NCBI GenBank assembly: GCA_024741835.1
Contig: JAENRP010000304.1
Span: forward strand, 1 to 54,036
DNA length: 54,036 bases
Reading direction: 5' to 3'
Source of the DNA: Diplocarpon mali
Taxonomy: Eukaryota > Ascomycota > Leotiomycetes > Helotiales > Drepanopezizaceae
Part shown: piece after piece, positions 3,966 to 37,649 of the stretch
Numbering within the stretch: position 1 is the first letter of the stretch
Layout of the letters: each line of letters starts with the position of its first letter
Notes under the pieces: model-generated
The model's database searches: none
What the model was told of the DNA's origin: nothing
What the model saw: only the letters and a program-made list of their open reading frames with translations
Position numbers and translations under genes: made by a program

Positions 3966-3977
3966 GTTATAAGCCCT
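3966..3977 (+). other. E primer-binding site, initiator tRNA-Met anticodon-arm type
   Basis: GTTATAAGCCCT directly follows the 5' LTR. Restoring one RIP change (TGA to TAA) gives the complement of the GGGCTCATAAC anticodon arm of eukaryotic initiator tRNA-Met. Copia of Drosophila and Ty5 of yeast are known to prime from such half-tRNA molecules. Confidence 0.7.
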
Positions 3978-4020
3978 ATGAGTACTTTAATATGCTTTCT
4001 CTTTGCATGCAACTGGCTAA

Positions 4021-4591: not shown

Positions 4592-4760
4592 TGTTGCGCC
4601 ATGAGGAGCCTCAGGCGCTGAGGCCTCTGAGGACTGGCTTATGTAATATACCCCTGAAGTGGCCACAGAGCACTTCTATAAAGGGAGCTCAGATATACAG
4701 TTAGAGTAGAATTTTACAAGCTTCTGCTACTACTAAGAATCCACTTCTAAATATAGTACA
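4592..4760 (+). repeat. B1 5' LTR (169 bp)
   Basis: Runs from TGTTGCGCC to GTACA. It is nearly identical to 19686-19857 over the block from ggactggcttatg to ctctaaata; a 3-bp indel (cga) near the 3' end explains the length difference. The following atagttattagcac is a poor match to the PBS seen in A, D and E. Confidence 0.9.
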
Positions 4761-5627: not shown

Positions 5628-6183
5628 CCAGTAGTACTCTCTTTTGAAAAGACCTTTTTAACTCGCATAAGGAAGTATATAAAATAGGTATATAAAGGAG
5701 GTAGATTAGTAGCAAATAATCAAATAGTAATAAAGAATAAAATAGTAAAGATAAATAGCTTAATAGCAAAGGCAGGTATAATAGGTAGTAAGGATAGTAT
5801 ATAGGAAATAGAATAGCAAAGATAAAGGCAAATAGCAAAGAGGGAAAGGAAAGGTATTCAAGTGATAGAAGTAATTTAAAGTCTTTATTTAAGCCTTATA
5901 GTAGTGCGATTATAGTCTAGTTGCGTTTTAATAGGTTCAAGACTCTTTATTAAAGAGTCATCCGGAGTTGTAATCTACTATAGCTATGAATTATAATAAT
6001 CTATAGAAGGGAAAAGAGGGGCCTTTAAGAAGGCATATATATCGAGCTTCTCTCTTCCTTTGATCTTTTAACTCCAATTCCCACTTCTTATAAGTAGGTC
6101 GATTCCCCCTCTTACTTTTAAATTAATTAACCTTATAGTAGATCTTATCCTATACTATCCTATTAATAATATTATTATTAATA
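5628..6183. other. C1 non-coding segment between 3' LTR and antisense ORF
   Basis: It contains tandem-like tag-rich sequence (5690-5850), whose minus-strand aromatic/Leu ORF I treat as a shadow, and the exact palindrome gactctttattaaagagtc at 5941-5959. No coding signal supported by C1-C2 comparison was seen. If the antisense gene is transcribed, its promoter would have to lie here or in the adjacent LTR. Confidence 0.5.
5941..5959. repeat. 19-bp perfect palindrome conserved in family C
   Basis: gactctttattaaagagtc has 9-bp arms around a single central base. The same 19 bases occur at 36344-36362 in C2 although the flanks have diverged by RIP. It could form an RNA hairpin or be a protein-binding site; no function is shown. 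Confidence 0.7.
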
Positions 6184-7215
6184 AGTGCTTTAATTGTTAG
6201 CCGACCCCCTTTAATATATATATCGCTGACTTAGATAGTACTTAAATGCAATCCTAAGGACCTGCTTAAGGCTTTTCAAGTGCTATGCGTACGTTATGCG
6301 CATATGATATTAAGAAAGGAGGCTAGTAAGAATAATAACAGCCATATATACGCATTTAATACTCTCACTTTTAAGAAGTATAACTACTGCATTACGCAAT
6401 AGGCAAAGTGTATCTTAGTAAGTGCCCTTTAATATCCTCTTACCTTAATAACCTTTAATAGATATCCGTTTTAAATACCCATTTAGGCTTAAGATAAGTA
6501 CATTATCCTTTAAGATGCTTAGGTTAGTAGTAATATTAAAGTGATTTAAGAGGCAGCCTAAATCTTATCTAAGGAGACTTAGATATAAATCTCTATAGTC
6601 CTAAAGACTTAGAATGCCCTTTAGCTGGCTTAGCTAAATAAAGCTTATACTCTCTACTATAGTATCGACCTTGTAAATACCTAATAAGCTATATATGCCC
6701 TTGAATCTATTTAATATTAATAATTAACTATTCGCAGGATCTATTGCGTACTATCTAAGGTAGCAATACTGCCTTTAGGTGTTTTGAAACTTAAGGTGCT
6801 AAGGTGCTTAGCTCCCTTTAGTATATAGAAGGGCTATTTAGCTTAGCTAAGGGCTGCTCTTAGGCTCCTTTTAATAATATCTGCTATTAAAAAGGCAAGG
6901 GCAGATAAGTGCCTTTTAAAGGCTCTTTAAAGGGTAGGGATCTGGATCTTAATAATTTAAATAAGTCGAATCTAAAGGAGATCGCGGCCGCTTTTGCTTA
7001 AGTGCAAGCTTAAAAGAAGTAGGCCAACTTGGCTGCTATTTCGGGTAGTAAGGCTTCTAGGCCTTAAGGGTTTAGGAATCTACGCCTTAGAAATCCTAGT
7101 GCTTAGGATAAGTGCTTATTAGGAGTAGAATCGCTAGTAGATTATTATCTTTAGTAATATAATAATTGCTACTTTGCTATAACCTCCTTCTTTAGTATTA
7201 CTTAAGTGATAAAAA
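6184..7215 (+). pseudogene. C1 antisense accessory ORF with Cys cluster
   Basis: On the strand opposite to gag-pol, this frame is free of TGA from 6184 to about 6830, with only TAA/TAG at likely Gln codons. Near 6335-6430 it encodes an F-N-T-L-T-F-K-K stretch followed by N-Y-C and A-K-C-I-L-V. Comparison with C2 suggests an ancestral C-x9-C-x2-C-x6-C cluster, possibly zinc-binding. Downstream, a +1-shifted frame looks protein-like, with a helical L-K-E-I-A-A-A-L-T-Q stretch (best read in C2), so a frameshift or intron is likely. The start codon is not certain. I do not recognise the family. It is convergent with pol, ending about 180 bp from the pol end. Confidence 0.6.
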
Positions 7216-7229
7216 AATGCAAGTACGCG

Positions 7230-7370
7230 CAGGTAAATAAGAAAAGATAAAAAGAAGGTAGTAATAGTAAGTATAGGAATATAGTAAGAAAAAAAGAAGG
7301 TAGTAATAGCAAGTATAGGAATATATCTCATAGTAAAAATAAAAAAATAAATAAAAAAATTGCCAATAGC
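7230..7370. repeat. Purine-rich direct repeats at the pol/antisense-ORF junction (C1)
   Basis: Two copies of an approximately 45-bp unit (aagaaggtagtaatag, then aagtataggaatat) followed by A-rich sequence fill the gap between the 3' ends of the two convergent frames. C2 has the same arrangement at 37650-37760. The minus-strand ORF here encodes only Tyr/Phe-rich low-complexity sequence and is not a gene. Confidence 0.75.
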
Positions 7371-7394
7371 TTGCAATTAAAAAATATCAGATAT

Positions 7395-12950: not shown

Positions 12951-13087
12951 GTAACTGATATTACTTTATACATTTAGATTAGTATTTAAAATAAGCTGGA
13001 AATATAATTAAGTACTCTTTAAATCAAGAAAGAATTCTTTAGTTTAATAACCTTGCTATTTATAGTAAAGGTGCTACCACTAATTAG

Positions 13088-13386
13088 TATAGGTTCTATA
13101 CTAGTAATCGATATTCATATAAATATAGTTAAGTACTTATTATTAAAAAGAATCTATTATAATATCTGTCTATTTCTATATGATTAAGATAGTACCTTTA
13201 TACTTATAAATATCCTCCCTCTTATAGTCCTTCCTAGCTGTATATAGATATCCTTCCGAGGTCCTCCGGCTAAATAGCCGTCCGAAATATATACGAAACC
13301 CCTTATATTGCATATGGTATAGCTATATGGGATGACCCCAGGAACGAGGGCAGCTTGCCTCCTGCATAGGAATCTGCGTACCAATA
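13088..13386 (-). repeat. C1 5' LTR (299 bp)
   Basis: On the minus strand it starts TATTGGTACGCAG and ends CCTATA, and is followed by ctaattagtggtagcacc, which is not the initiator-tRNA PBS seen in A, D and E. Its CACGTG palindrome has been converted to catata by RIP. Confidence 0.93.
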
Positions 13387-13391
13387 GTTAA

Positions 13392-18370: not shown

Positions 18371-18474
18371 ATAATTCTTTCATATCTCCTTTATAATAGC
18401 AAGTGGGAAGGAAGCGTAAGATAGGGTTCAATTTTCCTTATACTAATATATAAGAAGGCTTAAAACCAACTCCC

Positions 18475-19398
18475 TTAGATAATCAGAACCTCTAATAGCT
18501 TTGCGAATAATATAAGGGCGCGTCCTTACTAAGAAGCAACCGACTCCTCCGGTAGTATAGCCCTAGGAGCCGCCTAAGGAGCAACGCCAGGAACAACTAT
18601 AGGTATACTATAAGCTACTGCAAGGGCAGGAGCCTTAAAAGCCTCTATAAAGCAAGCGGCGAGGCTAAGAGGTGCTATAATCGGCGGCAGGAGCTCCTAA
18701 GCCACTGGTTCTAGGAAGCTATTAGCTATAGTATAAGAAAGCTTATAATTAACGTACCCTCCGACGATACTACCTCTTCTATCTCTCTTTAGCGCGCCTT
18801 CCGAAGCTCCTCTCTTACCTTCCTTTTAATAGCAGCAAGGCCCTAAACTGCTTATTAGTAGTAAACCACCTAGAGAGAGCTTAAGAATATACTATAGTAT
18901 TACTATCGTTCTCCTTTAATAAGAATATATAATCTTCCTACGCCTCTAAGGCGCTAATAGGAAGCTCCTAGCACGCGTAGCCTCCCTTTGTATAACGAAA
19001 GCAGCGTACTCCTACTATGCTATTAAAGTATATACTAGCCGACTTCCTAGCTAGGAAGCTTTAAATGTATCCCTTATATAGTATATTCCTTATTAGCCCT
19101 TGCTTTGGCTTATAGCAGGAGGAGGGAGCTATAGAGGGGACCGCCGGTATTCTAGGAACTATGGCCTAGGGGGTGGCGAGGAGGGAAGGGGGCGCGCTCC
19201 CTCTTAAGGGTATTATTATATCGAACGTCTTAGGCGCGTTATTATCTTACTATCTGCTGCATTAAGAAGCTCTAAGCTATGTTCAGGTATGACGACTTCG
19301 CTAGAAGTCTATTAGCAGGAGTAAGGGAGCATAAGCAGGAAGCGTATAGTAGTAGCCCTAGTAGGGCGCTCCTTAAAGTTATTATTACTATTCTCCAT
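18475..19398 (-). pseudogene. B1 antisense accessory ORF
   Basis: The minus-strand frame starts at an ATG (19398, M-E-N-S-N-N-N) and runs about 300 codons with no TGA; all in-frame stops are TAA/TAG explainable as former Gln codons. Protein-like blocks include P-E-H-S-L-E-L-L-N-A-A-D, R-L-R-R-S-I, Q-R-E-A-T-R-A-R-S-F and G-A-L-K-R-D-R-R-G-S-I. The region is visibly more GC-rich than the pol genes. It occupies the same slot as the antisense ORFs of C, E and F, between pol and the 3' LTR and convergent to pol. I find no clear Cys cluster and do not recognise the family. The plus strand is also TGA-poor here but less protein-like. The end is placed at the TAA at 18475 and is uncertain. Confidence 0.55.
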
Positions 19399-19685
19399 TT
19401 TTTAAAGTGATTATTTAAAGAAGTATAAGGAAGGAAAGCTTTATAAGGAAAAACGCGTACTTTTATAGGCGCGCTGCCTTTATTAACTTTCCTTTATTAC
19501 CTAATTTAGCTTCTATTCTATAGAGGAAGCACCTAGAACGCGCTTCCTCTTTCATTTATTATAGCTTTATCAAGCAATTTTCATTATTCTAAAAGCTAAG
19601 GAGTATAATAAAGGAGTCTTATATACTAGATCTAGCGCTAGTTATAGCTAAGCCTAGCTAAGAGCTGCTTCTTACCTAAGGGATA
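19399..19685. other. B1 segment between antisense ORF and 3' LTR
   Basis: No gene seen. It would contain the promoter and leader of the antisense ORF if expressed. A short purine run aaggga abuts the LTR (about 19677-19682), the polypurine-tract position. Confidence 0.45.
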
Positions 19686-19857
19686 TATTGCGCTATAAGG
19701 AGCCTTAGGCGCTAAGGCCTTTGAGGACTGGCTTATGTAATGTACCCCTGAAGTGGCCACGGAGCACTTCTATAAAGGGAGCTCAGATATACAGTTAGAG
19801 TAGAATTTTACAAGCTTCTGCCACCACTGAGAATCCACCTCTAAATACAGCACGACA
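19686..19857 (+). repeat. B1 3' LTR (172 bp)
   Basis: Runs from TATTGCGCT (TG became TA) to GCACGACA. It aligns with 4592-4760, and the following atagg equals the 5-bp sequence before 4592, proving that this is the 3' LTR of B1 and not the 5' LTR of the copia genes that follow. Confidence 0.93.
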
Positions 19858-19862
19858 ATAGG

Positions 19863-22800: not shown

Positions 22801-25000
22801 CAGATCTTTAGCTACTATTTTATATAAGAATAAAGATGGCTTAAGAGCTTTAAAATAGAGTCTTCAATTATAAAGGCAGGCCTTAGTAAACTCTAGTAAA
22901 AGGCTAAAGGCACTACTACCAAGATCTGGAAGGAGCTTTAATAGTCTTATAAGAAGCGACCTAATAAGAGGAGTAGGCCTTAATAATATAATACCTTAAG
23001 TTGTAATACTAGCTTAAAGATTATAAGCTTAAAAGATAAAGCTACCTAGACTTTTAAAGGAACCTTTAGCAATAATAAAAATAAAGAAGAAGACCTATAG
23101 AGAAAAGCGCAAAGAGGAACTCCTTCTTCTTAAGTAAAAGAGGATAAAACGCTTAAGCATTAAGTAATAGGAGACTTTAAAAGTATATACTATTGCTTTA
23201 AAGTATATACTCTTTTAAAGTAATATTGATTTACCCTACTCTTTATATATATAGGAGTTTGTATTAACCTTTTAAGCGAACGAATAGATAAAGGAGAATA
23301 AGAAGGACTATTTAATAGTTTATATAATTATTAAAGCTATAGTTAATAGTTAGGCAAAGGATAAAGCGCAGTCTCTTAACCGCCTATAGCATTAAGGCTT
23401 TCTACTAAAGCCTCCGAAAGGATAGTAGGACTTAGAAAAGTACCCTTTTAACAAACGATTTAAAGAAGGAGGGTATTAAGAGATTAGGAATCTAGAATCT
23501 CAAAGTTGCTAGAAAATTATATAAAGGGACTACTTAAAGCCCTTGCTAATACTATTAAAATGGGTTTTTACTTATAAGGTTAATAGCTTTAGCGAGCTTC
23601 TAAAGTACCGATTATAGCTAGTTATACAAAGGGATTTTTAAGATAAAGCTTCAATTTTCTCAACTTATATAGCTATACTTATAGTAAGGTCTTTTAAGGT
23701 ACTAATAGCACTTATTACGTACTTTGATATAGAAGTAAAGTAGTTCGATATTATTAATACATTTATTAATACTTTTAAAGACCTAAGGAGTGCTTTAGTT
23801 ATATGCTTCCTATTAGATGGCTTTAAGCGCCTTAGTATAGTAGTAGAACTAGACCGCGCGCTCTATAAGCTAAAAGACTCTTTAGTGCTATAGTATAGGA
23901 ACTTCGCAGGAATGCTTAAGGGCCTTTAACTCAAGCTATTAAGCGAGGAGCCTTATATTTTTATAATAAAGGATCGTATAGTCTTTATAGCATTTTATAT
24001 TAATAATATTTAAGTATTATATAAGGCCTTTAACTTAAATTAGGTAACTTATTTAATTAAAGACCTAAAGAGGGTATATAAGCTTACTATTATAAGAGAT
24101 ATCTCCTAATTCCTTAGAATAAGGATTATTTAAAATAGAAAGGTAAAGAGGATCTTTTTAATTTATAATACTTATATTAAAAAGATCGCTCAAAAGTTTA
24201 AAGCTAATATAAGAAGAGTGCTTAATACTTTATTATTAAAGAAGGAGTTTATTAAGAACTTAAGGCAAGCTTTTTTAAAAAAGGTAAAAGAGTATTAAGA
24301 GAAAATAGGCTCTATTCTTTATATAGCGATTATAATACGCTTAGATATTGCATTTATAGCCTTTTAATTATCTTTCTTCTTAACTAATCTAAGCTTTAAG
24401 TACCTTTTAGCCGCGGATTAGACGCTTTAATACTTATATAGTATGCGCTTTTTAAGAATTACCTATAGCTTTAAGGCTAAGGAATACTAATTGGTTGCGT
24501 CTTTAAATACTTCTTTTAAAAATGATTAAAAGACTTATAGATCCTCTTAAGGATATATCTTCTTTCTATTTAAAGGACTAATTATTTAAAAAGCGAATTA
24601 TTAAGCGATTATCACGCTCTCCTTTATTAAAGTAGAACTCTATAGTATAGTATCTATTATAAAGGAGATAATAGTTATAAAACGCCTCTTTAAGGAGATT
24701 CGCATAAACTCCCTCTTTAAATAGAATATCTATTATAATAATTAATAGATAATTCGGCTAATTATTATAAAGAATAAGAAGATTAAGATAAGCCTTTAAT
24801 ATATTAAAATTAATAATATATAGATCTGCTAAAAGTATTAAAGAAGAAGCTTTTAAATAATTTACCTTCTTATTAAAGAGATATACGCAGATAGGCTTAT
24901 TAAGAACTTAGACTGCTAGAAGTTTAAAAGCTTTATTTATTTATTAAACCTTTAAAGCTTTTAAATAATCGTTTAATAATTCGCATTCGCTAGCAAGTAG
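19863..25000 (+). pseudogene. E copia gag-pol, main piece
   Basis: Resumes the E gag frame at 19863 (V-F-K-T-V-D-R-T-L-L-A-S-A). The knuckle-like C-P-C-K-G-F-K-N-H-Y lies near 20510-20545. The protease-like L-N-N-C-A-A-T-Y is near 20890-20925, with Asp-to-Asn and His-to-Tyr RIP changes against B1. GAG-pre-integrase-like sequence is near 21405, and RT has K-W-V-F-T-Y near 23555, S-T-Y and F-Y-I-N-N-I near 23995. RNase H is around 24420-24750, with C-terminal L-L-N-L near 24945. Domain order and motifs match B1, so E and B1 are members of one copia clade with different LTRs. Many TAA/TAG stops are present; not functional. Confidence 0.85.
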
Positions 25001-25158
25001 TCACTTATTACTAAAAGACTTATACTTATAAGCTCCTACTCTCTTATAGTTATATTTATTTGTTTTCTCTTATAAAGCGCATTATAAAAGCTTCTCCTTT
25101 TCTAAAAATATAAGATAGGTAATATTCCTAAGCTGTTATTATAAAGCGCAACCCTTTC

Positions 25159-25779
25159 TCAAATCCTCTTAGCTAAGGCTAAGAGCCGCGAAGCTATAGC
25201 TATAAGCTCTATATAGATCTCCTCTTAAGAGAGGCCTAGAGGCACTCCCTTAGCCAAAGGCCTGCTGGCGAATATACTAGTAATAATAGGGGCGAAGGCA
25301 AGGGGTACGGCAAGGGCGATAGGAGCGAGGATAGCAAAGGCGGCGGCGATAGTAAGAGCGGCAATAGCAGGGGCAAGGATAGGAGAGATAAAGGGAGATA
25401 CTATAGCAGCGGCTGCAATAGCAGCGGCAGATAGGATAGGAGCGGCAGCGGCGATAGTAAGGGCGAATAGGTCCGAGCCGAAGGGGCTAGGAGCGAACGG
25501 GAATAGTATACTAAGAGTAGGGAAGGCAGCAGCACTACTACTCGCAGGAGTAGCAGGCCCTCCTAGCACTAGGGTCCAATCGCTCCTATCTTTTAAAATC
25601 AGCCTAAAACTTAATAAGACTTAATAAGATATATTATAAAAGCTTTAAAGCGCACCCTTTACTATATTAAGTAGTAGTACCACCTCCTCTTTAAAGGCGC
25701 CGCAGGCGCAGGCCGATATAATAGCCTCTTAAGAGGCAAGGAGAGGTCCGCTGGCCTACTAGCAGCCGTTGCTTAATAC
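25159..25779 (-). pseudogene. E antisense accessory ORF, C-terminal piece
   Basis: This minus-strand frame continues, in phase, the N-terminal piece at 33334-33516 once F and one AATAC copy are removed. After the Cys cluster come L-S-N-G-C, an S-A-C-A-C-G-A-F-K-E-E-V-V block and a long Ala/Ile/Pro-rich segment (25225-25569). A helical E-E-I-Y-I-E-L-I-A-I-A-S tail then ends at a TGA (25159-25161), not a RIP-type stop, so this may be the true end. The segment is unusually GC-rich for the window. An ORF of 114 codons (25225-25569) is intact within it. The other strand would read as a Gly/Ser/Asp/Lys-rich low-complexity chain, which cannot be wholly excluded. Family unknown. Confidence 0.55.
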
Positions 25780-26086
25780 TATAACGGCTGCACCTCCACT
25801 TGGTGCAATTACCTAGGAGTACGGCGTTTTAAGGTTTTGCAATCTCGATTCGATATAAGGTTATTTCGAATCGACCCCAAAGGTGCAAAAGGATATTCTT
25901 ATATAATATTATATAAATAGATAAAGAGCCTTAAGCTGCTTATATATATAAGAAAGACGGGCTCTCTCCTAAGGAGGGCTCTTTAACTTCTTCATTTCCT
26001 TTATATTAGACCTATAGAATACGCCTTTTGCACCACTTCTTACTCCTATACTTAATCTTGCACTTCGGCAGTTCTATATTATTATA
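25780..26086 (+). repeat. F 5' LTR (307 bp)
   Basis: Starts TATAACGGCTGCACC and ends ATTATTATA. It is heavily RIP-mutated at its 3' end compared with the 3' LTR, which keeps GTGTCGTTACA. The 26087-26390 leader that follows shows no gene. Confidence 0.93.
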
Positions 26087-26389
26087 TTAAATAAAGAAGT
26101 TCTTCTTCGCTAGGGACGGCTTTTAATAATATCCTATCTCTTTTGAAAATCGATTTGCAATTGTTTCGACTTTTAATAGAGTCAGGATTTTAAAGATCTC
26201 TTAAATAAACTGGAAGCTTAAGTATAGCTTATTAACTAATATAATCGAAGAACGCTTTTATTAGCCGGATTTTCTTAACTACTCCTTTTATAGAAGTACT
26301 ATAAGCAGAAGTTAGGAGAGTACTACGCTATTAAAACCCTTTTTCTATAGAACCCCTTTTTAACCGAATTACTACCGAAACTAAAATCG

Positions 26390-29300
26390 GTAAAATGAAT
26401 TCCCTATTAGCTGGAAGTTAGTAAATATAGAATGTACCCGATTCGTTTAGGAAATTAGCTTTTATAAGGAGTACCCCTACCCTAGCTCCTAAGGCCGGAC
26501 CTTCCTCTACCGCCAAAGGTAAAAGACTATAATACTATAGTTAAGCCAATTAAGATAAATAAGACTTTTTAAACTTAAACGTTTTATAAGGAATAGTCTT
26601 AGGTTTAAAGGAATCCTTATAATGCTAAGATTAATCTAATTGATAATTATAAAGCGAGATTAGCAGGATTGCCTAAGCTATCTTTAGCCTAAAGACCTTA
26701 GCTTATTAAAGCTAAGAGACGGCTTAGCGCGTATATTAGACTATTAAGTAAGAATCCACTTACCTTTAATAAAGTAAGACCCAGCCTCCTTTAAAAGTTG
26801 ATATAGATATAAAATGGCTAAAAATTCAGCTAATCGAAAAGATCACCTCCTTTAATAATAGGACCTCTTTAATATATAAGTAGTAGTTAGCTTTAGTCTA
26901 AGACCGATTGTAAGTTAATACTAACCTATATTTGAATAAGCAAGCTCGCTAAGCCTTTATTTAAGGATCTACTATAAAATAAGCCCAAATATACCTTAAA
27001 CCCTAGTACCTCTTAGAGACTAACTCCTTTTAGAACTATTAAGAAATAGTAAAACTGCTAAGTAATTACTTTTTAATTAGCTAAAAGGTAGACTTATTCT
27101 AATTTACTTTCTATTACCTTTATATAAGAGAAGCCGGTTATACTAAAGAAACTTTCCTTTAATTTCAAGCCTAATTCTAATCTACTATAATTTAAAAAGA
27201 GGTCTTAAGATCTGAGTAGTTCTTCTTTATATAAAATAAAATTACCCTTTAGTTTAAAGCTGCCTACGCCTTAGCTAAGGCCTCTTAAAGGAAGGACTAT
27301 ACTATTATAATTAATTAATTGAATGCCTTTAATGCCGAACGCTAAAGTAATTAACTTCTTAACCCTTTGATTAAAAGTAAGGCAACTTTAGTATTATATT
27401 AAAAGATATTCGGTTCGCTCTTTAATAAGACTGCTTGCGGTTTAAGCGCTAGAAGTACTACCTAAGTTTCTAAGATACTAGCCTTAAAGCCGATTACCCC
27501 TTTTTACTAAGATATACTAGCTAAGGCTAGTTCTTCTACTTTGCCCTTTAAGCAAGCTACCTACTAGACTTATAGTAAAATTGATCACTATAAGACTAAG
27601 TGCCCTTTTATAAGTAAGATTAATACTTTAAAAGATATAAAGGAAGATAATCTAACTTTAGACTTAATTAAGAATAGGGTTAAAATAAAGGAAGATTAGA
27701 AAAACGAAAAGGCTTAAGAAAAGACTTTTACTTAGGCCTGCGAAAGTGCGACTTATTAAAGCTAGATCTTAACTCTTTAATAAAAGGGAAGCAATTCCTA
27801 ACCTTTTATACTATTAGTATAAATGGACTTAGAGTATTATTATTAGCTTTAATAGATACTAAAGCCCTTAGTTACCTATTTTTAAATTATTCCCTTTTTA
27901 TATATCTTTCGAAAGCGACTGGCTTTAAAATTCTTCCTCTTCTAGCCCCTATTCCTATCTATAGATTTTAGAATACTATTTGCGCATAAGCTATGCACTA
28001 TATGCGCTTTTACTTAATAATTGATAAAAGGCATATTTATAACTGCCCTTAGGTTATTCTCGACTTAGGCTAGCGTAATACTATTATTAAAGTCAAATAG
28101 ATGCGCCGATTCCGACTTAAACTTAATCTAAAGGAAAACCGATTTATATAGCCTTTATATTACCCCTTATCTCCTTAATTTGCAAAGGAAATTATCATTT
28201 ATCTTCCCCCTTTTAAAGGACTTCGAATCCGATCTAATTATTAAACTAATATTAATTATAAAGAACGGGAAATAGCTATAGACAAAGCTCGATAGATTAA
28301 TAGAAGATAGTCTTACGTTAATTTAATAGTCCTAACTAGGCGCAAGATCCCTTTTGCTATTACTAAGCCAGCGCCCTTGCCTATAACTAAGCTAGATCCA
28401 AGGAAATAGCCTAATATAAATCGACTATAATCTGACCTTATTTGCAAATGCCTTAAAGCTGCAGTTCTTATTTGCGAAATCAATACTAATGCCTTTTATT
28501 ATAATATAAAGTATAAGGAGATAGAGTTCTTTTAAACTAGTATTTATAAAGTAGATAGGATTCTAAAGGAAAGATACGAACCTAAGAATCCTAATATCGA
28601 AAAGCTAATTAACAATCGACTCTTAAAATAGTACCGATCTTTAAGATAAGCCTTTTTAAAAAGGGATATAGATACCCTCCTTCCCTATTAGTACTATAAT
28701 TATAAGATATAGCTAAAAGGGCCCTTGCCTAATGCCTATTTGCCCCTCTACTGTCAATCTACTAAAGAGCTTAAGGTTATAAAGGAGTACTTACTTAAGA
28801 ATTTAAATAAAGGCTTTATTAAGACAAGTACTAGCCCCTTCGCTTTACTAGTACTATTTATAAAGAAGGCCGATAGTAGCCTCTGATTTTATATAAACTA
28901 CTAGAAGCTAAATGCACTAACTCGAAAGGACGCTTACCTAATTCCGAAGATAGATAAACTTTTAAGATAAGTATCTAAAGCTAAGATTTTCATAAAACTA
29001 GATATTCGAGCCGCTTTTAATCGGATACAAATAGACCTTGAATCAAAGGAATATACTACCTTTCGAATAAAGTATAGATCCTATAAATGCAAGGTTCTCC
29101 CATTCGGCCTTTATAATAAACCTAGTACTTACTAATAGTATATAAATAATATTCTTTTAAATTACTTAAATGATTTTTATATAGCATATTTAAATAATAT
29201 TTTAATTTACTTTAAGAATATTGAAAAGCATTAGGACTATATTGAAAAGGTGCTGAAATAACTCTTAAAGGCTGGCCTTTAAGCAAATATTAAAAAGTGC

Positions 29301-31690
29301 AAATTCTATATTACTTAAACTCAATATCTCAAATACATTCTAATAATAACCGGGATCGAACCGGACCTTGAAAAGGTCGAACTACTATGCGATTAGAAGT
29401 ACTTAAAAACTATTATTAAAGTAAAGTCTTACTTAGGATTTTGCGAGTTCTATTAATAATTTATTCGCAACTTTAGGCTAATCGCCAAACCCCTTTTTAT
29501 TTTAACCCAACCGATAGTACTTTAGAATTGGATAAAAGAGTACCGAATCGCTTTTAAAGAGCTTTGTAAGCAATTGCTTTCGATTTAGCAGATTTATTAT
29601 TTTGACCCTAACTTACTTATAAAGCTGGAAACTGATGCTTCTAATAGCATTATCGCTAGAGTACTTTCTTAGCAATACTTTAATAAGCAATAGTACTTAA
29701 TCGGCTTCTATTTATATATACTTTCTAGTTATAAATCTAATTAGGAAATATATAATAAGGAACTCTTTACTATTATTGAATCCTATTATAAATAGAGACT
29801 TAAGCTTATATCACTTAAGGAGCGAGTTAATATTTACTTAGATCACCGCTCCCTTAAGTATTTTATAACTATTAAGGTTCTAACTATAAAATAGTACTAA
29901 TAGATAGAATTTTTATTTGACTTTAATTTTCGAATTATATATACTTTTAATAAAGACAACTAAAAGGCTAATATTCTTAATTGCTAAGAGTAGGATATGC
30001 CGGTTTATAAATAAGCGAAGTTAGATAGCCGATCTTAGGTTCTGATTTCCCTAGCTTAATTAGACCTTTGAATTAATATTAAACTGGCTGACAAATTTCT
30101 TGCCAGATTTACTAAAGGCACCTTTACCCTAATATTAACTGATGCTCCCGATTCGACCTTGAATCGACTTAAGGATTCCTTTAATTTAATTGAAAAGCTT
30201 TATTAAAATAATTACAAATCCTTTTAAAAGATTCGTACCAACCTCCTTAAGAATTACTTTTTAAAAGACAGATTGCTTTACTTTAAGAAGCGTCTTTGCG
30301 TATACTATAATACTCCTTTATATACTTATCTAATTTAGAAAGCTTATAACCAACCTTTAAGCGCGCACCTTAGTGGCTTAAAGACCTATTAGCTACTTAC
30401 TTTTAAGTACTATTAGGTTGAGATAGGTTCAGATTGCAAAAGATTTATTGCAAACTGCAGACCTTATTAATTCTCGCATTCAAAGATAATTAAATAATAA
30501 GGCCTCTTATAGCCTCTTCCTATTCCTAACTATCCTATATAGCACTTATATATAGATTTTAAGGATTTCCCTTTTAATAAGTATAGTTTTAATCGAATCC
30601 TAGTTTTTATAAACCAACTTAATAAGAGTACTATTATAATCCCTTATTAAAAAGATATTAACGCTTAAGGAACTGCCCGATTATTCGTTTAATAGATATA
30701 TCAATTTGGCTATACCCTAAAGACAATTACCTTAGACTAAGGCCTTTAGTTTGTCTCCTTATTTTAAAAAGAGTTCTGCTATATTATTAATATTAAGATT
30801 AAACTCTTTATAGCATACTATAAAAAGACTGACGGCTAAATAGAGATCATAAATAAGTATATTAATTTAAGGCTACGGCCTTTTATTAATTATTATTAAA
30901 ATAATTAAAGTAAATTAATTCTATTAATAGATCGTATGCAATCGACTCTCCTTTATGCTTCGATCGGTATAACCCTATATTAGCTTAAGTATAGAGTTGC
31001 ACCTTAGATAAGTTAGGACTAGATCTCTCCGAAACTGTCTAGCCTATAGAAGAGATTAAACTAAGCAAAGGCTAGGCTAATAGTAGAAAGGATGCACTTA
31101 GCCTAAGAAGTAGCAAAAGGCAATATAAAACGCGCTTAAGAGAAAATGCGTAAGTTTATAAATCAATATTAAAGGGAGATTGATTAGAAACCTAAAGATA
31201 TAGTCTACCTTTTAATAAAAAATCTTAAGAACTACCGCCTTAATAGGAAACTGGCTAATTAATAAGATAGTCCTTTTAAGGTTCTTAAGAAGGTAGGCAA
31301 TTTATATTAGATTAAGCTGCCTATAGGTTCTATAATATATAATATCTTTATATTAAAGCTACTATTTAAAGATCTGTAGAACCCTTTACTAGGTTAGGAA
31401 TAACCCTAGCTTATTATAGAAAAGATCGCTAGGTAAAAAGAGTATAAAGTATTTAAGATACTAAGGGTACGCCTATCTTAAGGAAAACTAAAGTACTAGG
31501 TTAAATAGACTAGTTATAACCTTGATTTAAGTTAATATCGCGCCTTAAATTTTACAAGATCCTTATATAAGATTCGCGACTTTTATTAGGCCAACCCTAT
31601 AAAGCTAGGACCACTTTAAAACCTATAAGCTTAACTAAAGGCTTAGGAAAGCGGTATAGATAATTATAGTCATTTGAAAGATAATAGACC
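26390..31690 (+). pseudogene. F gag-pol polyprotein with chromodomain, RIP-inactivated
   Basis: gag occupies about 26400-27600 and ends in a CCHC knuckle (D-H-Y-K-T-K-C-P-F near 27580, with two Cys changed to Tyr). The protease-like I-D-T-K-A near 27850 has the Gly of D-T-G mutated. RT includes F-I-K-L-D-I-R-A-A-F near 28990, L-P-F-G-L-Y near 29100 and the active site as Y-L-N-N-I near 29190 (Asp-Asp to Asn-Asn). RNase H starts with L-E-T-D-A-S-N near 29625. The integrase HHCC region (S-A-H-L-S-G, S-D-C-K-R, N-C) is about 30360-30475. A chromodomain (E-Y-K-V-F-K-I-L ... L-K-Y-x-V-K-W near 31440-31520) ends the protein. Chromodomains in such elements bind heterochromatin marks and guide integration. 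Confidence 0.9.
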
Positions 31691-31719
31691 AGATGCGAAA
31701 TAGGTTAGTAAATAAATCT

Positions 31720-31738
31720 AAAAAAAAAAAAAAAAAAA
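31720..31738. repeat. 19-bp A-run at the pol/antisense-ORF junction (F)
   Basis: An uninterrupted run of A lies between the chromodomain end and the 3' end of the convergent minus-strand ORF, followed by A-rich sequence to about 31770. It occupies the same relative position as the purine repeats of C1 and C2. Confidence 0.85.
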
Positions 31739-31764
31739 GGAGAAAAATAATAAAAAATATAAAA

Positions 31765-32786
31765 ATAATAACACTAGGCCTATTGCCCTTCCCTTTTATA
31801 ACTCCTCTGACCCCTCTTCCTCTGCGCTTAAGGAGATAAGCTCTAACTCTATTCTAAAGCTAGAGCTCGCCTTTTATCTATGCCTCCGCTTAGAATAACC
31901 CTAACCTTCTCTTGCCGCCGCTAGCGCCGTCCTATTAGCCACTGCGCCTAATGCTACCCTTATTACTATAAGCCTTCCTCTCCTTATAAGAGACTCTGCC
32001 GCTATAGCAGTCTGCTCTATTAATATAATAATAGACCTTAGAAGGCCTAGTATAGTTTGGCTGGATTGCTTTAACCTCGCTAGCTAGGACTTAATAAAGT
32101 TGCTGCACTCTTATTAGAAAGTTAGCAATTAATTTAATACTAATTTAAGTTGAACTTATAGCAATTATCGCCTAAACCTCCTTTAGCTAGCTTACTATAG
32201 CTTTAGTTATAAAGCGGAGCTTTATAAGGCTAGCGCGCTCGATTTAAGTGCAGCTAGTCAAAGCCTTTGCGCTAGCTATTAGTAAGAGGTTGATAAGGAT
32301 CCAGGCGCGCTAGACCGCCTTTTAATAGAGCATCTTGCGGTTCCTTACTAAAACCGCCCGCGCGTTATCGTTATCGCTATTATCGTCCTCCTCTTACTAC
32401 TAGGCAGCCTCCCCCTGCTACTCCTTAAGGGCCGCAGATAGCGCTACAAACTCCTCCTTAATATAAGAGAGAAGCTATAAATAAGTATTAGCGTAAATAG
32501 AATTGGAGAATCGATTTAAGGTACTTATAAGGATGCACTCTGCCTTCTGCTCTTAGTACTAATAGCACTTTTTACTACATTTAGACTCAAATTCGCACTT
32601 ATATGCAATATCGCGCATAAGGCGCCGTATATACTAGTAATAATAAATGCGATAGGCTACCGCAAGGGCGCCTGACAGCAAAGGGATCGGTACTATATAT
32701 ATTAGACGCGATTCGACCTTAGACTAGGGCAAACTTACTTATAGTAGTTAATAATAGTAGTAGTAATTGTTTCTACTACTATGCAT
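31765..32786 (-). pseudogene. F antisense accessory ORF with Cys cluster and acidic/Gln region
   Basis: On the minus strand from an ATG at 32786 (M-H-S-S-R-N-N, then a Tyr run) about 340 codons carry no TGA; the stops are TAA/TAG consistent with Gln codons. The order is Y-I-R-R-L-M-R-D-I-A, a Cys cluster Y-K-C-E-F-E-S-K-C-S-K-K-C ... A-E-C-I-L-I (about 32600-32530), a helix I-K-E-E-F-V-A-L-S-A-A-L-K-E, an E-E-D-D-N-S-D-N-D-N acidic stretch near 32380, then a basic C-terminal tail. The composition is hydrophilic and protein-like, unlike the plus-strand reading. It lies between pol and the 3' LTR and is convergent with pol. The exact C-terminus is unclear. Family not recognised; the Cys spacing is looser than in C and E. 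Confidence 0.62.
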
Positions 32787-33007
32787 TAGTCTTATACTAT
32801 ACTAGTAGGAGTAAGGGACTTATATAATTATATATAATTATTATACTAAGGAAGGAAGATCTTATAAGGGGAAAAACAAATTTAAATATATAACGCGACT
32901 TGCGCTAAACTAAATATAAAATAGTACCGTTTGTATAATAATGCGCTAAGTATATTACTATATAAAAATTATCGCAACCTACTAACGCTTATAGATAAGT
33001 ATTCTTA

Positions 33008-33021
33008 AAGGGGGAGGGTAG
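33008..33021 (+). other. F polypurine tract
   Basis: aaagggggagggta immediately precedes the 3' LTR, the site expected for plus-strand DNA priming in LTR elements. It confirms the plus orientation of F. Confidence 0.85.
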
Positions 33022-33328
33022 TATAACAGCTGTACCTTCACTTGGTGCAATTACCTAAGAGTATAGCGTTTTAAGGTTTTGCAATCTCGATTCGATATAG
33101 GGTTATTTCGAATCGACCCTAAAGGTACAAAAGGATATTCTTATATAATATTATATAAACGGATAAAGAGCCTTAAGCTACTTATATATATAAGGAAGAC
33201 AGGCTCTCCCCTAAGGAGGGCTTTCTAACTTCTTTGTTTCCTTTGTATTAGACCTATAGAATACGCCTTTTGCACCACTTCTTGCTCCTATACTTGATCT
33301 CGCACTTCGGCGGTTCTGTGTCGTTACA
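33022..33328 (+). repeat. F 3' LTR (307 bp)
   Basis: Starts TATAACAGCTGTACC and ends GTCGTTACA; full-length match to 25780-26086. Its 3' half retains CpA/TpG sites and is clearly less RIP-damaged than the 5' LTR. Confidence 0.94.
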
Positions 33329-33333
33329 AATAC

Positions 33334-33516
33334 CGCATAACGAATGCAACGCGTACCAAAGGTGCTATTAAAGCACCGACGATTGAGATTGCCGGTACTC
33401 CTGCGTGCGATATAACGTATATACGCGTTGTTGCGCTCTATTATAGGCTTAGGCATATGGCGCGCAGCGGGGGCAGGGCTCTCTAGCGGCAGTAGCAGCA
33501 AGGGCGGCGGCGGCAA
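33334..33516 (-). pseudogene. E antisense accessory ORF, N-terminal piece with Cys cluster
   Basis: The minus-strand frame opens at ATG 33516 (M-P-P-P-P-L-L-L-L-P) and encodes an Arg/Asn-rich segment. A cluster R-R-C-F-N-S-T-F-G-T-R-C-I-R-Y-A-V follows (33370-33334). The Tyr is a plausible RIP product of Cys (TGT to TAT) and the next Cys lies beyond the F insertion (L-S-N-G-C), giving C-x8-C-x2-C-x6-C. The reading then continues at 25779. The apparent ORF extension to 33211 is read-through into the F LTR and is not native. The region is GC-rich and little RIP-mutated. An alternative frame (Ala-rich, with P-C-P-R-C) also looks plausible upstream. Confidence 0.55.
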
Positions 33517-33999
33517 GGGCGACGGCTGCGGCGGCTTATTGCCTAGCAGGCACTAGGACGAGCGCGCTAGGGTTACAGCTCCTAAAGGAGCGCCAGCGAC
33601 CTAGCGCAAAGTCAGTATAACATAGGGTATAAGGACTCTAAGGGTCTTACTTTGCAAGGGCAGCTAGGGCTACGATAAGTAGGAGTTCCTTCTATATTTA
33701 AAAATTATTAGTATAAAGATAATATTTTTAAATAATAAAGGAGGGTTCTTTTTAAAAGAAGGGAAGGAGAACCTCTGCGATGGAAATACTCTATAAGAAG
33801 CCTAATAGAGCACTAGTATAGAATCGCGAAGATTCCTAAGCGCGCTTATTGCCTATAGCAACCCTTTTCGTTTTAAAAGGAACGACCTCTAGAGGAATAG
33901 CACGTAAGATAGAGCCTCTTTTCTTTATAACTGCCATTCTTTCTTTTGTTTTATCTATATAACTAAGCAATTTTAAAAGCATTGCCTAACTAAGGGGTA
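33517..33999. other. E segment between antisense ORF and 3' LTR
   Basis: It begins GC-rich (33517-33640) and becomes AT-rich. No convincing gene. A short purine-rich stretch (aactaagggg) precedes the LTR at the polypurine position. If the antisense gene is expressed, its promoter should lie here or in the LTR. Confidence 0.5.
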
Positions 34000-34196
34000 T
34001 ATTATACAGAATAGGCAGAGTCTCTACTTATTCTAAAGACCCTTTACGTAACTCTGCTAAGTCATAGACTCTCCCTTTTCTTTCCAAAGTCTCCTTACCA
34101 TATATATATTAGATAATAATACAATTAATCATCTTTTCCTACTTCTACAAGCCTCCTAAGCGACCTAATGAAGGCCCTCCAGCCGACCGCACCATA
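34000..34196 (+). repeat. E 3' LTR (197 bp)
   Basis: Starts TATTATACAGAATAGGC and ends CGCACCATA. It aligns without gaps to 3769-3965 with C/T and G/A differences. It is followed by the RIP-altered TSD copy cgata. Confidence 0.92.
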
Positions 34197-34201
34197 CGAT
34201 A

Positions 34202-35731
34202 ATATATATTACTAATCTTACTGCCTCTGATATTCTAAGTGGCAAGACTTTATATAAGGTCTTTTGGAATGATATTAAGCCTAATAAGCCTTATACTCCC
34301 TTAGTTAAGCATCTTCGAGTACTAGGCTATCGCATCTATATGCTAATTGAGAAAGAAAAGCGAACTTAAAGCAACAAACTTGCTTTAAAAGCAAAGGTAG
34401 GTACTCTTATCGGATTTAATAGCAGAAGTATCTATTAGATCTATATACTATCGCAAATAGGTAATAAGATTATTCGATTATCTTATATTCGATTTGATAA
34501 AGACGGCCTAATTATAAAGCTACAATTAAGGGATGATTTGACTCCTAGGCCGGGACCGCGAGTCAATACTGACTCTTACAATGATTTCACTCCTAGGCTA
34601 GGACCGCAAGTCAATTCTGATTTAGGAGAAGCTAATGAAGCTGAGCTTCTAACTCTAAGAAAGAGAGGAAGACCTCCTAGTTTAAAGAATAAGGCTCACC
34701 CTTAGCCTTCTAAGAAGAGAGCTACTCGCTTAACTTATGCTCTTAGATTCAAAGCTAATAACTTTAATAATAAGGAAGCCTATTTAAGTGCCTTCTATAT
34801 AGCCTTACTCGACTCTCCTTACCTAAATGACTTGAAAACAGTCGAATAAGCCCTCTCTTGCGCTAATACCGATAAATGGCAATCTGCGATCAACTTTAAG
34901 TATAATTCCCTTACTTATAAGAATATATAGGTAGTAGTTAAACGCTTAAAACTCTCTAAAGACGATAGAGTACTTAGATCAAGGCTTGTCTTTAAAATAA
35001 AAAGAGATTAAAATAGGGAAATCTCCTGATCGAAGGTCAGATTTATTATATAAGGCTATATATAATAATAAGGTCGAAATTACAATTAGACTTTTGCTAA
35101 AGTATGCAAATCTATAGTTTAGAAGATCGCGATTGCGCTTATAGCGCTATACGACTTTAAGCTAGATTAGTTCAATATTAAGATAGCTTTCCTTAACTCA
35201 AAAGCTAACTCTAACATCTACGTTAAGTTACCTCTTAAATACACTTAAGATAAGGTTGTTCTTTCACCTTAAGACTACTATCTTAAGCTTCTTAAGGCCT
35301 TATATAGCTTAAAGCAATCTCTACGACTATAGTAAGAAAAGCTATAGTCCAAGCTGCAAAAGCTCGATTTTCAACCTCTTAATACTAATAATTGCATATA
35401 TATCAACCGCGCCTTTCGGATTCTTATCATTACCTACGTCGACGACTTCCTTATAGTAGCAAAGAAAGTTAATATATATAATAAGTTTAAAAGAGATCTT
35501 TGCAACCTCTTTAAGATTATAAGTAGCGAACCGGCTAACTACTTCTTAAGAGTACGTATAGTTAGAGATCGATAAAATAGAACGATCTCGCTTTATTAAG
35601 ACGCTTATATTAATAAGGTTCTTAAACGTTTTTATATAATTAATTGTAAAAGCGTACTAACGCCTTTTGCTAATGGCTATGAAATTCATATAATCAAATT
35701 TGATAGCTAAGCCACTCTATAGGAAGTGAAG
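34202..35731 (+). pseudogene. D1 copia integrase C-term, linker and RT
   Basis: Joins the D1 frame from 3768: I-T-N-L-T-A-S-D follows L-L-L-S-M, as expected of copia integrase. The capsule L-R-V-L-G-Y-R-I-Y and a K-V-G-T-L-I-G-F block follow (about 34315-34420). A linker with two T-P-R-x-G-P-x-V peptide repeats (34537-34615) and an AT-hook-like K-R-G-R-P-P-S lies next, near 34665. RT starts near 34870, with L-V-F-K-I-K-R near 34990 and an intact Y-V-D-D-F-L-I-V-A box at 35434-35460. The C2 insertion cuts it at 35731. TAA/TAG stops are relatively few for this window. Confidence 0.88.
34537..34615 (+). repeat. Two T-P-R-x-G-P-x-V peptide repeat units in D1
   Basis: Units ACTCCTAGGCCGGGACCGCG (34537) and ACTCCTAGGCTAGGACCGCA (about 34582) are each followed by agtcaat and ctga. 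Each has gactc/gagtc-type inverted ends. Both are in frame with D1 pol and encode T-P-R-P-G-P-R-V-N and T-P-R-L-G-P-Q-V-N. Confidence 0.85.
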
Positions 35732-36030
35732 TATAGGTTCTATACCGGTAATCGATATTCACGTGAATATAGTTGAGTATTTATTATTAAAAAGAATCTA
35801 TTATAATATCTGTCTATCTTTATATAACTGAGATAGTACCTTTATACTTATAAATGTCCTCCCTCTTATAATCACTCCTAGCCGTATATAGATATCCTTT
35901 TAAGGTCTTCCGGCTGAATAGCCGTTTGAAATACATACAAAACCCCTTATATCGCATATGGTATAGCTATATAGGATGACCTTAGGAATAAGGGCAGGTT
36001 GCCTCTTGCATAAGAATCTGCGTACTAATA
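35732..36030 (-). repeat. C2 3' LTR (299 bp)
   Basis: Matches 5329-5627 and keeps the ATATTCACGTGAATAT palindrome at 35755-35770. It ends at ctaata, with flanking ccggcag in the element interior. Confidence 0.93.
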
Positions 36031-36587
36031 CCGGCAGTACTCTCTTTTAAAAAGACCTTTTCAACTCGCATAAGGAAGTATATAGAATAGGTGTATAAAG
36101 GAGGTAGATTAGTAGTAAATAATCAAATAGTAATAAAGAATAAAATAGTAAAGATAAATAGCTTAATAGTAAAGGCAGGTGTAATAGGTAGTAAGGATAG
36201 TATATAGAAAGTAGAATAGTAAAGATAAAGGCAAATAGTAAAGAGGGAAAGGAAAGGTGTCTAAGTGATAGAAGCAATTTAAAGTCTTTATTTAAGCCTT
36301 ATAGTAGTACGATTATAGTCCGGTTGCGTTCTAGTAGGTTTAAGACTCTTTATTAAAGAGTCATCTAAAGTTATAATCTATTATAGCTATAAATTATAAT
36401 AATCTATAGAAGGGAAAAGAGGGGCCTTTAAGAAGGCATATATATTAAGCTTCCCTTTTCCTTTGATCTTTCAACTTTAACTTCCACTTCTTATAAGTAG
36501 GTCGATCTCCCCCTCTTGCTTTTGAATTGATTAACCCTATAGTAGATCTTATCTCATACTATCTTATTAATAATATTATTATTAGTA
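36031..36587. other. C2 non-coding segment between 3' LTR and antisense ORF
   Basis: Collinear with 5628-6183 of C1. It holds the conserved 19-bp palindrome at 36344-36362. The minus-strand aromatic ORF 36047-36277 is a low-complexity shadow, also present in C1. Confidence 0.55.
36344..36362. repeat. 19-bp palindrome, C2 copy
   Basis: gactctttattaaagagtc is identical to C1 5941-5959. Confidence 0.7.
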
Positions 36588-37612
36588 AGTGCTCCGATTA
36601 TTGGCCGACCCCTTTTAATATATATATTACTAACTTAAATAGTGCTTGAATGCAATTTAAAAGACCTTCCTAAGGCATTTCAAGTGCTTTGCGTATATTA
36701 TACGCAAGTGATATTAAGAAAGGAGGCTAGTAAGAATAATACTAGCTATATATGCGCATTTAATACTCTTACTTTTAAGAAGTATAATTACTATATTATG
36801 CAATAGGCAAAGTATATCCTAGTAAGTGCCCTTTAATATCTTTATACTTTAATAACCTTTAATAGATATTTATTTTAAATACCTATTTAGGCTTAGGATA
36901 AGTATATTATCCTCTAGGATACTTAAGTTAGTAGTAACGTTAAAGCGATCTAAGAGGCGGCCTAAATCCTATCTAAAGAGACTTAGATATAAATCTCTAT
37001 AGTCCTAAAGACTTAAGATGCCCTTTAGCTAGCCTAGCTAAATAAAGCTTATGCCCTTTACTATAGTATCAACCTTGCGAATACCTAGTAAGCTATAAGT
37101 GCCTTTGAATCTATCTAATATTAATAATTGACTATTTATAAGATCTATTATGTATTATCTAAAGTAGTAATGCTACCTTTAGGCGTCTTAAAACTCAAGG
37201 CGCTAAGGTGCTTAGCTCCCTCTAGTATATAGAAGGGCTATCTAGCTCGGCTAGGGGCTGCTCTTAGGCTTTCTTTAATAATATCTGCTGCTAAAAAGGC
37301 AAGGGTAGATAGGTACCTTCTAAAGGCTCTTTAAAAGGTAAGGATCTGGATCTTAATAATCTAGATAAGCCGAATCTAAAGGAGATCGCAGCCGCTCTTA
37401 CTTAAGTGCGAGCTTAAGAGGAGTAGGCCAACTTGGCTGCTACTTTAGGTAGTAAGGCTTCTAAGCCTTAAGGGTTTAGGGATCTACGCCTTAGAAATCC
37501 TAGTACTTAGGATAGGTACTTATTAAAGGTGGAATTATTAGTAGATTATTATCTTTAGTAATATAGTAATCGCTGCTTTGCTATAACCTCCTTCTTAAGT
37601 ACTACTTAAGTG
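36588..37612 (+). pseudogene. C2 antisense accessory ORF with Cys cluster
   Basis: Collinear with C1 6184-7215. It reads I-C-A-F-N-T-L-T-F-K-K then N-Y-Y-I, with A-K-Y replacing A-K-C. C1 and C2 have lost different Cys codons to Tyr by RIP, so together they indicate C-x9-C-x2-C-x6-C. The 3' part in the shifted frame gives K-G-K-D-L-D-L-N-N-L-D-K and L-K-E-I-A-A-A-L-T-Q-V-R-A-Q, a clearly helical hydrophilic segment, ending after S-F-L-S-T-T. Only TAA/TAG stops occur. Position and direction are as in C1. Function unknown. Confidence 0.6.
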
Positions 37613-37649
37613 ATAAAAAAATGCAAGTACGCGCAAGTAAGTAAGAAAA

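What the first reader, a model, noticed from the sequence alone, without database searches (positions are those of the whole stretch)
5628..37612. Convergent antisense accessory ORF between pol and the 3' LTR in four LTR families, Copia and Gypsy
Five elements (B1 18475-19398, C1 6184-7215, C2 36588-37612, E 33516-33334 joined to 25779-25159, F 32786-31765) each have a long frame opposite to gag-pol in the same slot. In the stretches I read, in-frame stops are TAA/TAG, attributable to RIP of Gln codons; TGA appears only at the likely true end in E. In E the frame is kept across the F insertion. Antisense ORFs in this slot are known in some plant elements (e.g. Grande), but I know of no description of a shared module across fungal Copia and Gypsy families. 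It may act as a regulator or a captured gene, with its promoter in or near the 3' LTR. Family A lacks the space for it.
Basis: partly seen in the sequence, partly recalled or inferred. Interest (0 to 1): 0.85.

Follow-up and report, generated by a model that had tools for sequence, protein, structure and literature searches.

The report
Cysteine-motif antisense genes in fungal retrotransposons
Mutated jumping genes in a fungus appear to carry an extra, intron-containing gene on the opposite strand, and in two quite different families that gene shares a small cysteine-rich exon, so an accessory gene seems to have been inherited or swapped between them.

Summary
TGA is rare in every frame (572 of 9,972 stops), because RIP destroys TpG; and outside E the long antisense frames are no more open than others. 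Copy-to-copy comparison still points to antisense genes between pol and the 3' LTR, split by short introns. In E, shared transversions fall 14 of 14 on one codon position and are synonymous on the antisense strand (11.0 of 12), not on the mirrored sense strand (3.0 of 13). C (Copia-like by domain order, my reading) and F (Gypsy) share a cysteine exon: best of 216 frame-pair comparisons, 0 of 60 shuffles as good, flanked in both by predicted introns in matching places and phases. B and E (Copia) share a similar exon with each other; the link between the two pairs is weak. Six predicted Diplocarpon/Marssonina proteins match E and F. Strand is decided only for E; F is undecided. Antisense accessory genes are known (Boty brtn, Grande, Retand); sharing across element types was not found in my listings. 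Expression and function are untested.

The parts
6239..6417 (+). C1 antisense exon with CxxC...CxF...KKCxxC......C pattern (gag-pol is on the minus strand)
   Evidence: coordinates from the mapping; stop fraction 0.033 against 0.058-0.116 in the other five frames over ref 2-257
6181..6238 (+). C1 putative intron upstream of the cysteine exon
   Evidence: donor GTAAGT in 7 of 9 readable copies, acceptor AG in 17 of 19; no RNA evidence
6418..6461 (+). C1 putative intron just after the cysteine exon, phase 0; one of three acceptors the scan offered, chosen by hand
   Evidence: donor GTAAGT in 11 and RIP form in 6 of 19 copies; acceptor AG 17 of 19
6462..7238 (+). C1 putative antisense exon 2 (weakly supported)
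   Evidence: stop fraction 0.083, hardly lower than 0.086 and 0.090 in two sense-strand frames; shared transversions 3/1/2 by codon position
36643..37642 (+). C2 copy of the same gene (cysteine exon 36643-36821, intron 36822-36865, ex2 36866-37642)
   Evidence: mapping
32529..32692 (-). F antisense cysteine exon; same pattern as C except that the first Cys position reads Tyr in copy L096
   Evidence: but the frame is not the most open of six here (0.065 against 0.032 and 0.033)
32693..32738 (-). F putative intron upstream of the cysteine exon
   Evidence: donor GTAAGT 31 of 31, acceptor AG 26 of 31
32475..32528 (-). F putative intron after the cysteine exon, phase 0
   Evidence: donor in RIP form in 30 and canonical in 1 of 31; acceptor AG 30 of 31; junction as in predicted protein P0007
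32160..32474 (-). F antisense exon 2
   Evidence: matches P0007; of 12 stop columns 10 have Gln and 1 Trp in other copies; a sense frame is more open (0.043 against 0.084)
32111..32159 (-). F putative second downstream intron
   Evidence: donor in RIP form 28 of 31; acceptor AG only 16 of 31; junction as in P0007
31796..32110 (-). F antisense exon 3, acidic end, terminal stop
   Evidence: matches P0007 in a frame different from exon 2
18894..19186 (-). B1 antisense exon 1; in copy L037 reads C..S.........Y........C..Y......C, alignable with E
   Evidence: 3 of 5 stop columns are stops in every copy
18475..18846 (-). B1 antisense exon 2
   Evidence: stop fraction 0.043 against 0.069-0.114; shared transversions 2/1/6 by codon position
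33332..33489 (-). E antisense exon 1, first part (cut by the F insertion)
25636..25775 (-). E antisense exon 1, second part
25588..25635 (-). E putative intron (about 45 bases; limits set by hand, ends approximate)
   Evidence: stretch absent from P0002-P0005; acceptor AG 17 of 17; donor GT in 5 and AT in 2 of 7 readable copies; the automatic scan offered none here
25159..25587 (-). E antisense exon 2 (Ala/Pro-rich, conserved C-terminus), terminal stop
   Evidence: matches P0002-P0006; codon-position and strand tests over the E span

Best explanation
Each of the four families carries a real antisense gene between pol and the 3' LTR, read from the 3' LTR side towards pol and interrupted by short introns on the antisense strand. 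In C and F the gene is homologous: a small cysteine-cluster exon bounded by two introns at matching positions and phases, then tails too diverged to align. B and E carry a cysteine-cluster exon homologous between those two, possibly a distant relative of the C/F exon. RIP has put stops into all five window copies. Most likely working, inferred: a nuclear, metal-binding regulator of the element's own transcription or silencing, made from an antisense promoter at or near the 3' LTR. Shown: constraint on the antisense strand in E; a shared exon with matching predicted introns in C and F. Inferred: expression, splicing, metal binding, regulation. My probabilities: gene real in E and F 0.95, in B and C 0.85; C-F homology 0.85; all four homologous 0.5; regulator by protein 0.5.
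For: E: 14 of 14 shared transversions at one codon position, synonymous 11.0 of 12 antisense against 3.0 of 13 mirrored sense; the method favours the true strand in both pol controls (13.0/20 against 8.4/21 and 15.0/24 against 10.9/21). Nine chosen exons pooled: 21/3/32 shared transversion sites at codon positions 1/2/3; 48/18/56 if single-copy changes count. C-F cysteine exon: best of 216 frame-pair comparisons (E 1.2e-4); E 3.8e-5 with 0 of 60 shuffles; 0 of 100. B-E: 0 of 100. GTAAGT in at least 30% of copies: three places on the antisense strand of C and one of F, none on their sense strands, none in B or E. Positions and phases of the two introns around the cysteine exon match in C and F. 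Six predicted Diplocarpon/Marssonina proteins follow the antisense strand of E (five) and F (one). Many copies: 117, 150 and 119 scored matches for C, E and F.
Against: No RNA data. The chosen frame is the most open of six in 5 of 9 exons only (B ex1, B ex2, C ex1, C ex2, E ex2); in E ex1 and the three F exons a sense-strand frame is more open, and frames were chosen by eye. In the lightly mutated E copy L094 five of six frames have only 4-5 stops, so openness says little there. P0007 skips most of the F cysteine exon and reads its start in another frame. F strand test is undecided (3.8/8 antisense, 4.5/7 sense), C only suggestive (3.7/5 against 1.3/6); B shows no periodicity over the claimed span (17/14/13). 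At a laxer cut (either donor form in 80% of copies) one F sense-strand site also appears, against three in C and four in F antisense. Mirrored sense frames score nearly as well in profile comparison (C-F second best of 216). Tails do not align: Cex2-Fex2 28, Cex2-Fex3 13, Bex2-Eex2 22 of 60 shuffles as good. No homologue outside Diplocarpon/Marssonina in three searches, which used E twice and F once and scored only the candidates sharing most words or 86 candidates. No start codon assigned.
Confidence: 0.58

Rival explanations
1. The antisense genes are real, but the C/F gene and the B/E gene are two unrelated captures; the cysteine patterns resemble each other by convergence on metal binding.
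For: Cross-group profile scores are weak: B-C 41, C-E 6, E-F 2 of 100 shuffles as good. The intron pair found around the C and F exon was not seen in B or E.
Against: B-F 0 of 100 and 0 of 60, though over a short stretch; similar spacing of the second CxxC and the last Cys in C, E and F.
Confidence: 0.35
2. No gene: RIP and base composition leave mirrored frames low in stops, and the reader saw chance openness.
For: TGA scarcity is window-wide; the claimed long frames of C, F and B are no more open than others; mirrored frames score almost as high; chosen frame is most open in only 5 of 9 exons.
Against: Transversions, which RIP does not cause, show codon periodicity and antisense synonymy in E; cysteine exon and matching intron plan in C and F.
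Confidence: 0.05
3. The sense strand is coding (an extension of pol or a small extra sense gene) and the antisense frame is its shadow.
For: In F the plus frame in phase with pol has the fewest stops over the claimed span (17 against 24); sense frames are more open in the three F exons; F strand test undecided.
Against: E strand test 11.0/12 against 3.0/13; GTAAGT sites only on the antisense strand of C and F at the 30% cut; predicted proteins follow the antisense strand.
Confidence: 0.07
4. The antisense transcript matters as RNA (double-stranded RNA feeding silencing), the protein little.
For: Proposed for such elements in the review PMC7264820 (passages); three Botrytis Gypsy subfamilies make small RNAs (PMC8365987, passages).
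Against: Protein-level constraint in E and a protein-level shared exon in C and F would not be kept for RNA alone.
Confidence: 0.1

Closest known systems
brtn of Boty (Gypsy, Botrytis cinerea; Zhao et al. 2011)
   Same: Extra antisense gene between pol and 3' LTR of a fungal LTR element; known to me through passages of PMC8365987, PMC7264820, PMC4227169 and PMC5987419.
   Different: The paper itself is not held and I had no brtn sequence, so homology is untested. PMC8365987 mentions further additional ORFs in its Figure S1, which I did not see; some may be antisense. Here families with Copia polymerase carry such genes and introns are predicted.
Retand antisense ORFs with TRP28 domain (plants; PMC11963269, passages)
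   Different: No PF04195 match here; plant Gypsy lineage.
Grande gene23 (maize; PMC7264820, passages)
   Same: Antisense gene in the same slot with its own promoter; nuclear protein.
   Different: No sequence relation tested.
HBZ of HTLV-1 (name and properties recalled; the HTLV antisense promoter is in PMC7264820 passages)
   Same: Antisense, 3' LTR-driven regulator as a working analogy.
   Different: Retrovirus; no sequence relation claimed.
Zn(II)2Cys6 fungal transcription factors (pattern recalled)
   Same: Six cysteines with CxxC pairs.
   Different: First loop is 10-17 residues in E, F and C rather than 6; no Pfam hit (on partly mutated copies).

Membership tests
Antisense accessory ORF between pol and 3' LTR (aORF-3R class) | Lies between pol and 3' LTR | tested here: met
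Antisense accessory ORF between pol and 3' LTR (aORF-3R class) | Protein-coding on the strand opposite gag-pol: family E | tested here: met
Antisense accessory ORF between pol and 3' LTR (aORF-3R class) | Protein-coding on the strand opposite gag-pol: families B, C, F | tested here: inconclusive
   strand test suggestive for C, undecided for F, not run for B; supported indirectly
Antisense accessory ORF between pol and 3' LTR (aORF-3R class) | Present in most copies of the family | tested here: inconclusive
   117 (C), 150 (E), 119 (F) scored protein matches and 40 scored of 131 first-look DNA candidates for B; for C first-look candidates are similar for the gene (160, 165) and pol (172); no copy-by-copy count made
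Antisense accessory ORF between pol and 3' LTR (aORF-3R class) | Transcribed antisense | not testable with these tools
   no RNA reads available
brtn | Sequence homology to BRTN | not tested
   brtn sequence not in hand; paper not held
TRP28 (PF04195) proteins | Match to the Pfam model | tested here: not met
Zn(II)2Cys6 (Gal4-type) domain | CX2CX6CX5-12CX2CX6-8C (recalled) and Pfam match | tested here: not met
   first loop 10-17 residues; no such Pfam match at E 10
Copia superfamily (family C) | RVT_2 match | tested here: inconclusive
   no match in any frame tried; BLASTP found none and profile comparison with A, B, E, F gave no significant match; order integrase-RT-RNase H read by eye
Gypsy superfamily (family F) | RVT_1, then RNase H, then integrase zinc-binding domain | tested here: met
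   (integrase zinc-binding match below Pfam's cut-off)

The most novel reading that the evidence does not exclude
One ancestral antisense, intron-bearing cysteine-cluster gene has been carried by, or exchanged between, Copia-type and Gypsy elements across the Leotiomycetes, with brtn of Boty as one descendant. It works as a self-encoded regulator read from the 3' LTR side, and its introns survive because the genomic RNA is the other strand.
Probability: 0.28. Interest if true: 0.78.

Novelty: new variant of a known kind. Interest (0 to 1): 0.58.

Why it matters
Antisense accessory genes of LTR elements are known, and their origin and role are called open in the two papers I saw passages of (PMC7264820; PMC11963269). 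A homologous antisense exon with matching introns in a Gypsy and a Copia-like family would show that such modules move between element types or are very old. The predicted antisense introns offer a direct test: spliced antisense reads can be sought in RNA data.

Tried and rejected
Rejected arguments: TGA scarcity and long open frames. Stop counts over whole spans were uninformative: one search used badly aligned flanks, and mixed exons and introns. A plain Cys-pattern scan over 96 loci hit six; only one (C copy L095) is convincing, the others being low-complexity or flanking frames. Codon-position counts with L094 as reference put E exon 2 at 9/1/6, I think because L094 differs by indels; the 14 of 14 figure is from projection on L070. 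The C pol control had only 3 transversion sites and says nothing. Pol of C could not be placed in a superfamily. Intron limits: the scan offered three acceptors in C, four donor-acceptor pairs in B, one each in F, none in E; I chose by hand. Single-sequence fold of P0007 gave mean pLDDT 53.8 with a helix at 125-207: too weak for a fold search, none made. Literature: no paper on a shared antisense module of Copia and Gypsy in fungi in the listings (open-licence PMC only; 87 listed 10 of 377). Copies used: C 18-19, B 30, E 16-17 with the window, F 30-31, chosen as best matches to the mutated window copies or, for L094-L096, as copies with few stops; not a random sample.
Full report
What is in the window. 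The window is a nest of strongly mutated LTR elements (CA and TG at 0.37 and 0.41 of expectation, TA at 1.39). C1 (5322-13387) and C2 (35725-43785) are two copies of one minus-strand family. F (25777-33326) is a plus-strand Gypsy element with RVT_1 and RNase H matches and a weaker integrase zinc-binding match, nested in E. B1 and E are plus-strand Copia elements with RVT_2 matches, 38% identical over pol. E copies elsewhere in the genome run across the F site without a break (15 of 15 fetched). Named proteins closest to the E and F antisense genes come from Diplocarpon (Marssonina) coronariae, so the host is that fungus or a near relative (inference).

Why the first argument fails. TGA is 572 of 9,972 stop triplets over the six frames, because RIP removes TpG everywhere. 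Outside E the claimed frames have about as many stops as their neighbours. On whole spans of C, F and B this would have been a negative result.

Why the genes look real. RIP makes transitions, so I used transversions shared by at least two copies. In pol, where the frame is known, they fall mostly on third positions (B 3/0/10, F 4/0/14; the C pol control had too few sites). In the E antisense span 14 of 14 fall on one codon position. At those sites the change is synonymous in the antisense frame in 11.0 of 12 and in the mirrored sense frame in 3.0 of 13; in both pol controls the true strand wins. C gives 7 of 9 in the claimed phase, with strand test 3.7 of 5 against 1.3 of 6. F is biased to the claimed phase (17 of 34 counting single copies, p 0.1) but strand-undecided. 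B shows nothing over the whole claimed span (17/14/13). With exon limits, pooled counts at codon positions 1/2/3 are 21/3/32. Against this, the chosen frame is the most open of six in only 5 of 9 exons; in E exon 1 and the three F exons a sense frame is more open.

Exon plan. Frame shifts explain the poor long frames. A predicted D. coronariae protein (P0007, 252 aa) runs through F exon 2 and then, in another frame, F exon 3; it reads the start of the cysteine exon in a different frame and skips most of it. Donor and acceptor states across copies: F intron after the cysteine exon, donor in RIP form 30 of 31 and canonical 1, acceptor AG 30 of 31; next F intron, donor in RIP form 28 of 31, acceptor AG 16 of 31; C donor canonical GTAAGT 11 and RIP form 6 of 19, acceptor 17 of 19; E donor GT 5 of 7 readable, acceptor 17 of 17; B acceptor 25 of 30. 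GTAAGT in 30% or more of copies occurs only on the antisense strand of C (three places) and F (one); with either form in 80% or more there is also one F sense-strand site. These are sequence predictions; no RNA was seen.

The shared exon. Among 216 pairings of six frames of four families, the best is the antisense frame of C with that of F (E 1.2e-4), over the cysteine region; its mirror pair is second (E 5.5e-4). Restricted to the exon: probability 70.9, E 3.8e-5, 0 of 60 column shuffles as good, and 0 of 100. In both families the exon is preceded by a putative intron ending ATAG in the same phase (46 bases in F, 58 in C) and followed by a phase-0 one right after A-x-C-x-x (54 in F, 44 in C). 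The F position aligned to the first Cys of C reads Tyr in L096. Exon lengths of 164 and 179 bases differ by five codons; the alignment puts a six-residue gap in the first loop. The B and E cysteine exons match each other (0 of 100), with a putative intron after the same GTA|GTACGT junction. Between groups the evidence is weak and mixed: B-F 0, E-F 2, C-E 6, B-C 41 of 100. Tails do not align in the pairs tried: Cex2-Fex2 28, Cex2-Fex3 13, Bex2-Eex2 22 of 60.

RIP and stops. In the chosen exons, stop columns with Gln or Trp in another copy are: B 2 of 5 and 4 of 7; C 3 of 5 and 18 of 27; E 2 of 5 and 3 of 4; F 3 of 5, 11 of 12 and 7 of 8. Columns that are stops in every copy number 3 and 2 (B), 1 and 7 (C), 1 and 1 (E), 1, 1 and 1 (F); terminal stops are among them. 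So RIP of Gln and Trp codons can explain most F stops, and about half to two thirds in the others. Among the 150 E matches listed, one full-length match has a single stop inside: near-intact copies exist.

What it is and is not. The class is known: antisense accessory genes in this slot (Grande, RIRE2, Retand, PvRetro13, Boty brtn; PMC7264820 and PMC11963269, passages; PMC8365987 and PMC4227169, passages). What I did not find in the listings is one antisense module in Copia and Gypsy families of a fungus; PMC8365987 mentions further additional ORFs in a figure I did not see. The Copia label of C is the soft spot: only the order of integrase-like, DD-containing RT-like and RNase H-like stretches, read by eye, supports it; the pol frame itself is clear (11 stops in 683 codons against 49 and 32).

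Mechanism. The most likely role is a self-encoded regulator made from an antisense transcript, by analogy with Grande gene23 and retroviral antisense genes. The cysteine pattern suggests metal binding, but it fails the Zn2Cys6 spacing and no Pfam model of that kind matches. Expression, splicing, promoter, start codon, location and binding are untested.

Noticed in passing
34202-34801 (+): SH3_retrovirus match (PF25597, E 9.9e-9) in a frame with 3 stops per 600 bases just beyond the E 3' LTR repeat: a piece of another Copia pol.
   Followed up: no
52400-53712: Truncated copy of the C family in the opposite orientation to C1 and C2, carrying one LTR and about 1 kb next to it.
   Followed up: no
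46513-47059: Diverged tandem-like repeats about 67-70% alike, overlapping the only ORF of 150 aa or more in the window, 46547-47014 minus.
   Followed up: no
51410-51663 and 52095-52348: Two direct repeats of 254 bases, 90% alike, 685 bases start to start: possibly the LTRs of a very short element.
   Followed up: no
3776-5322 and 19688-34196: LTR fragments suggest three levels of nesting: C1 inside B1, B1 inside E, and F separately inside E.
   Followed up: partly
E antisense region of L094: A lightly mutated E copy has GC 0.65 and only 4-5 stops in five of its six frames, which alone would mislead an ORF scan.
   Followed up: yes
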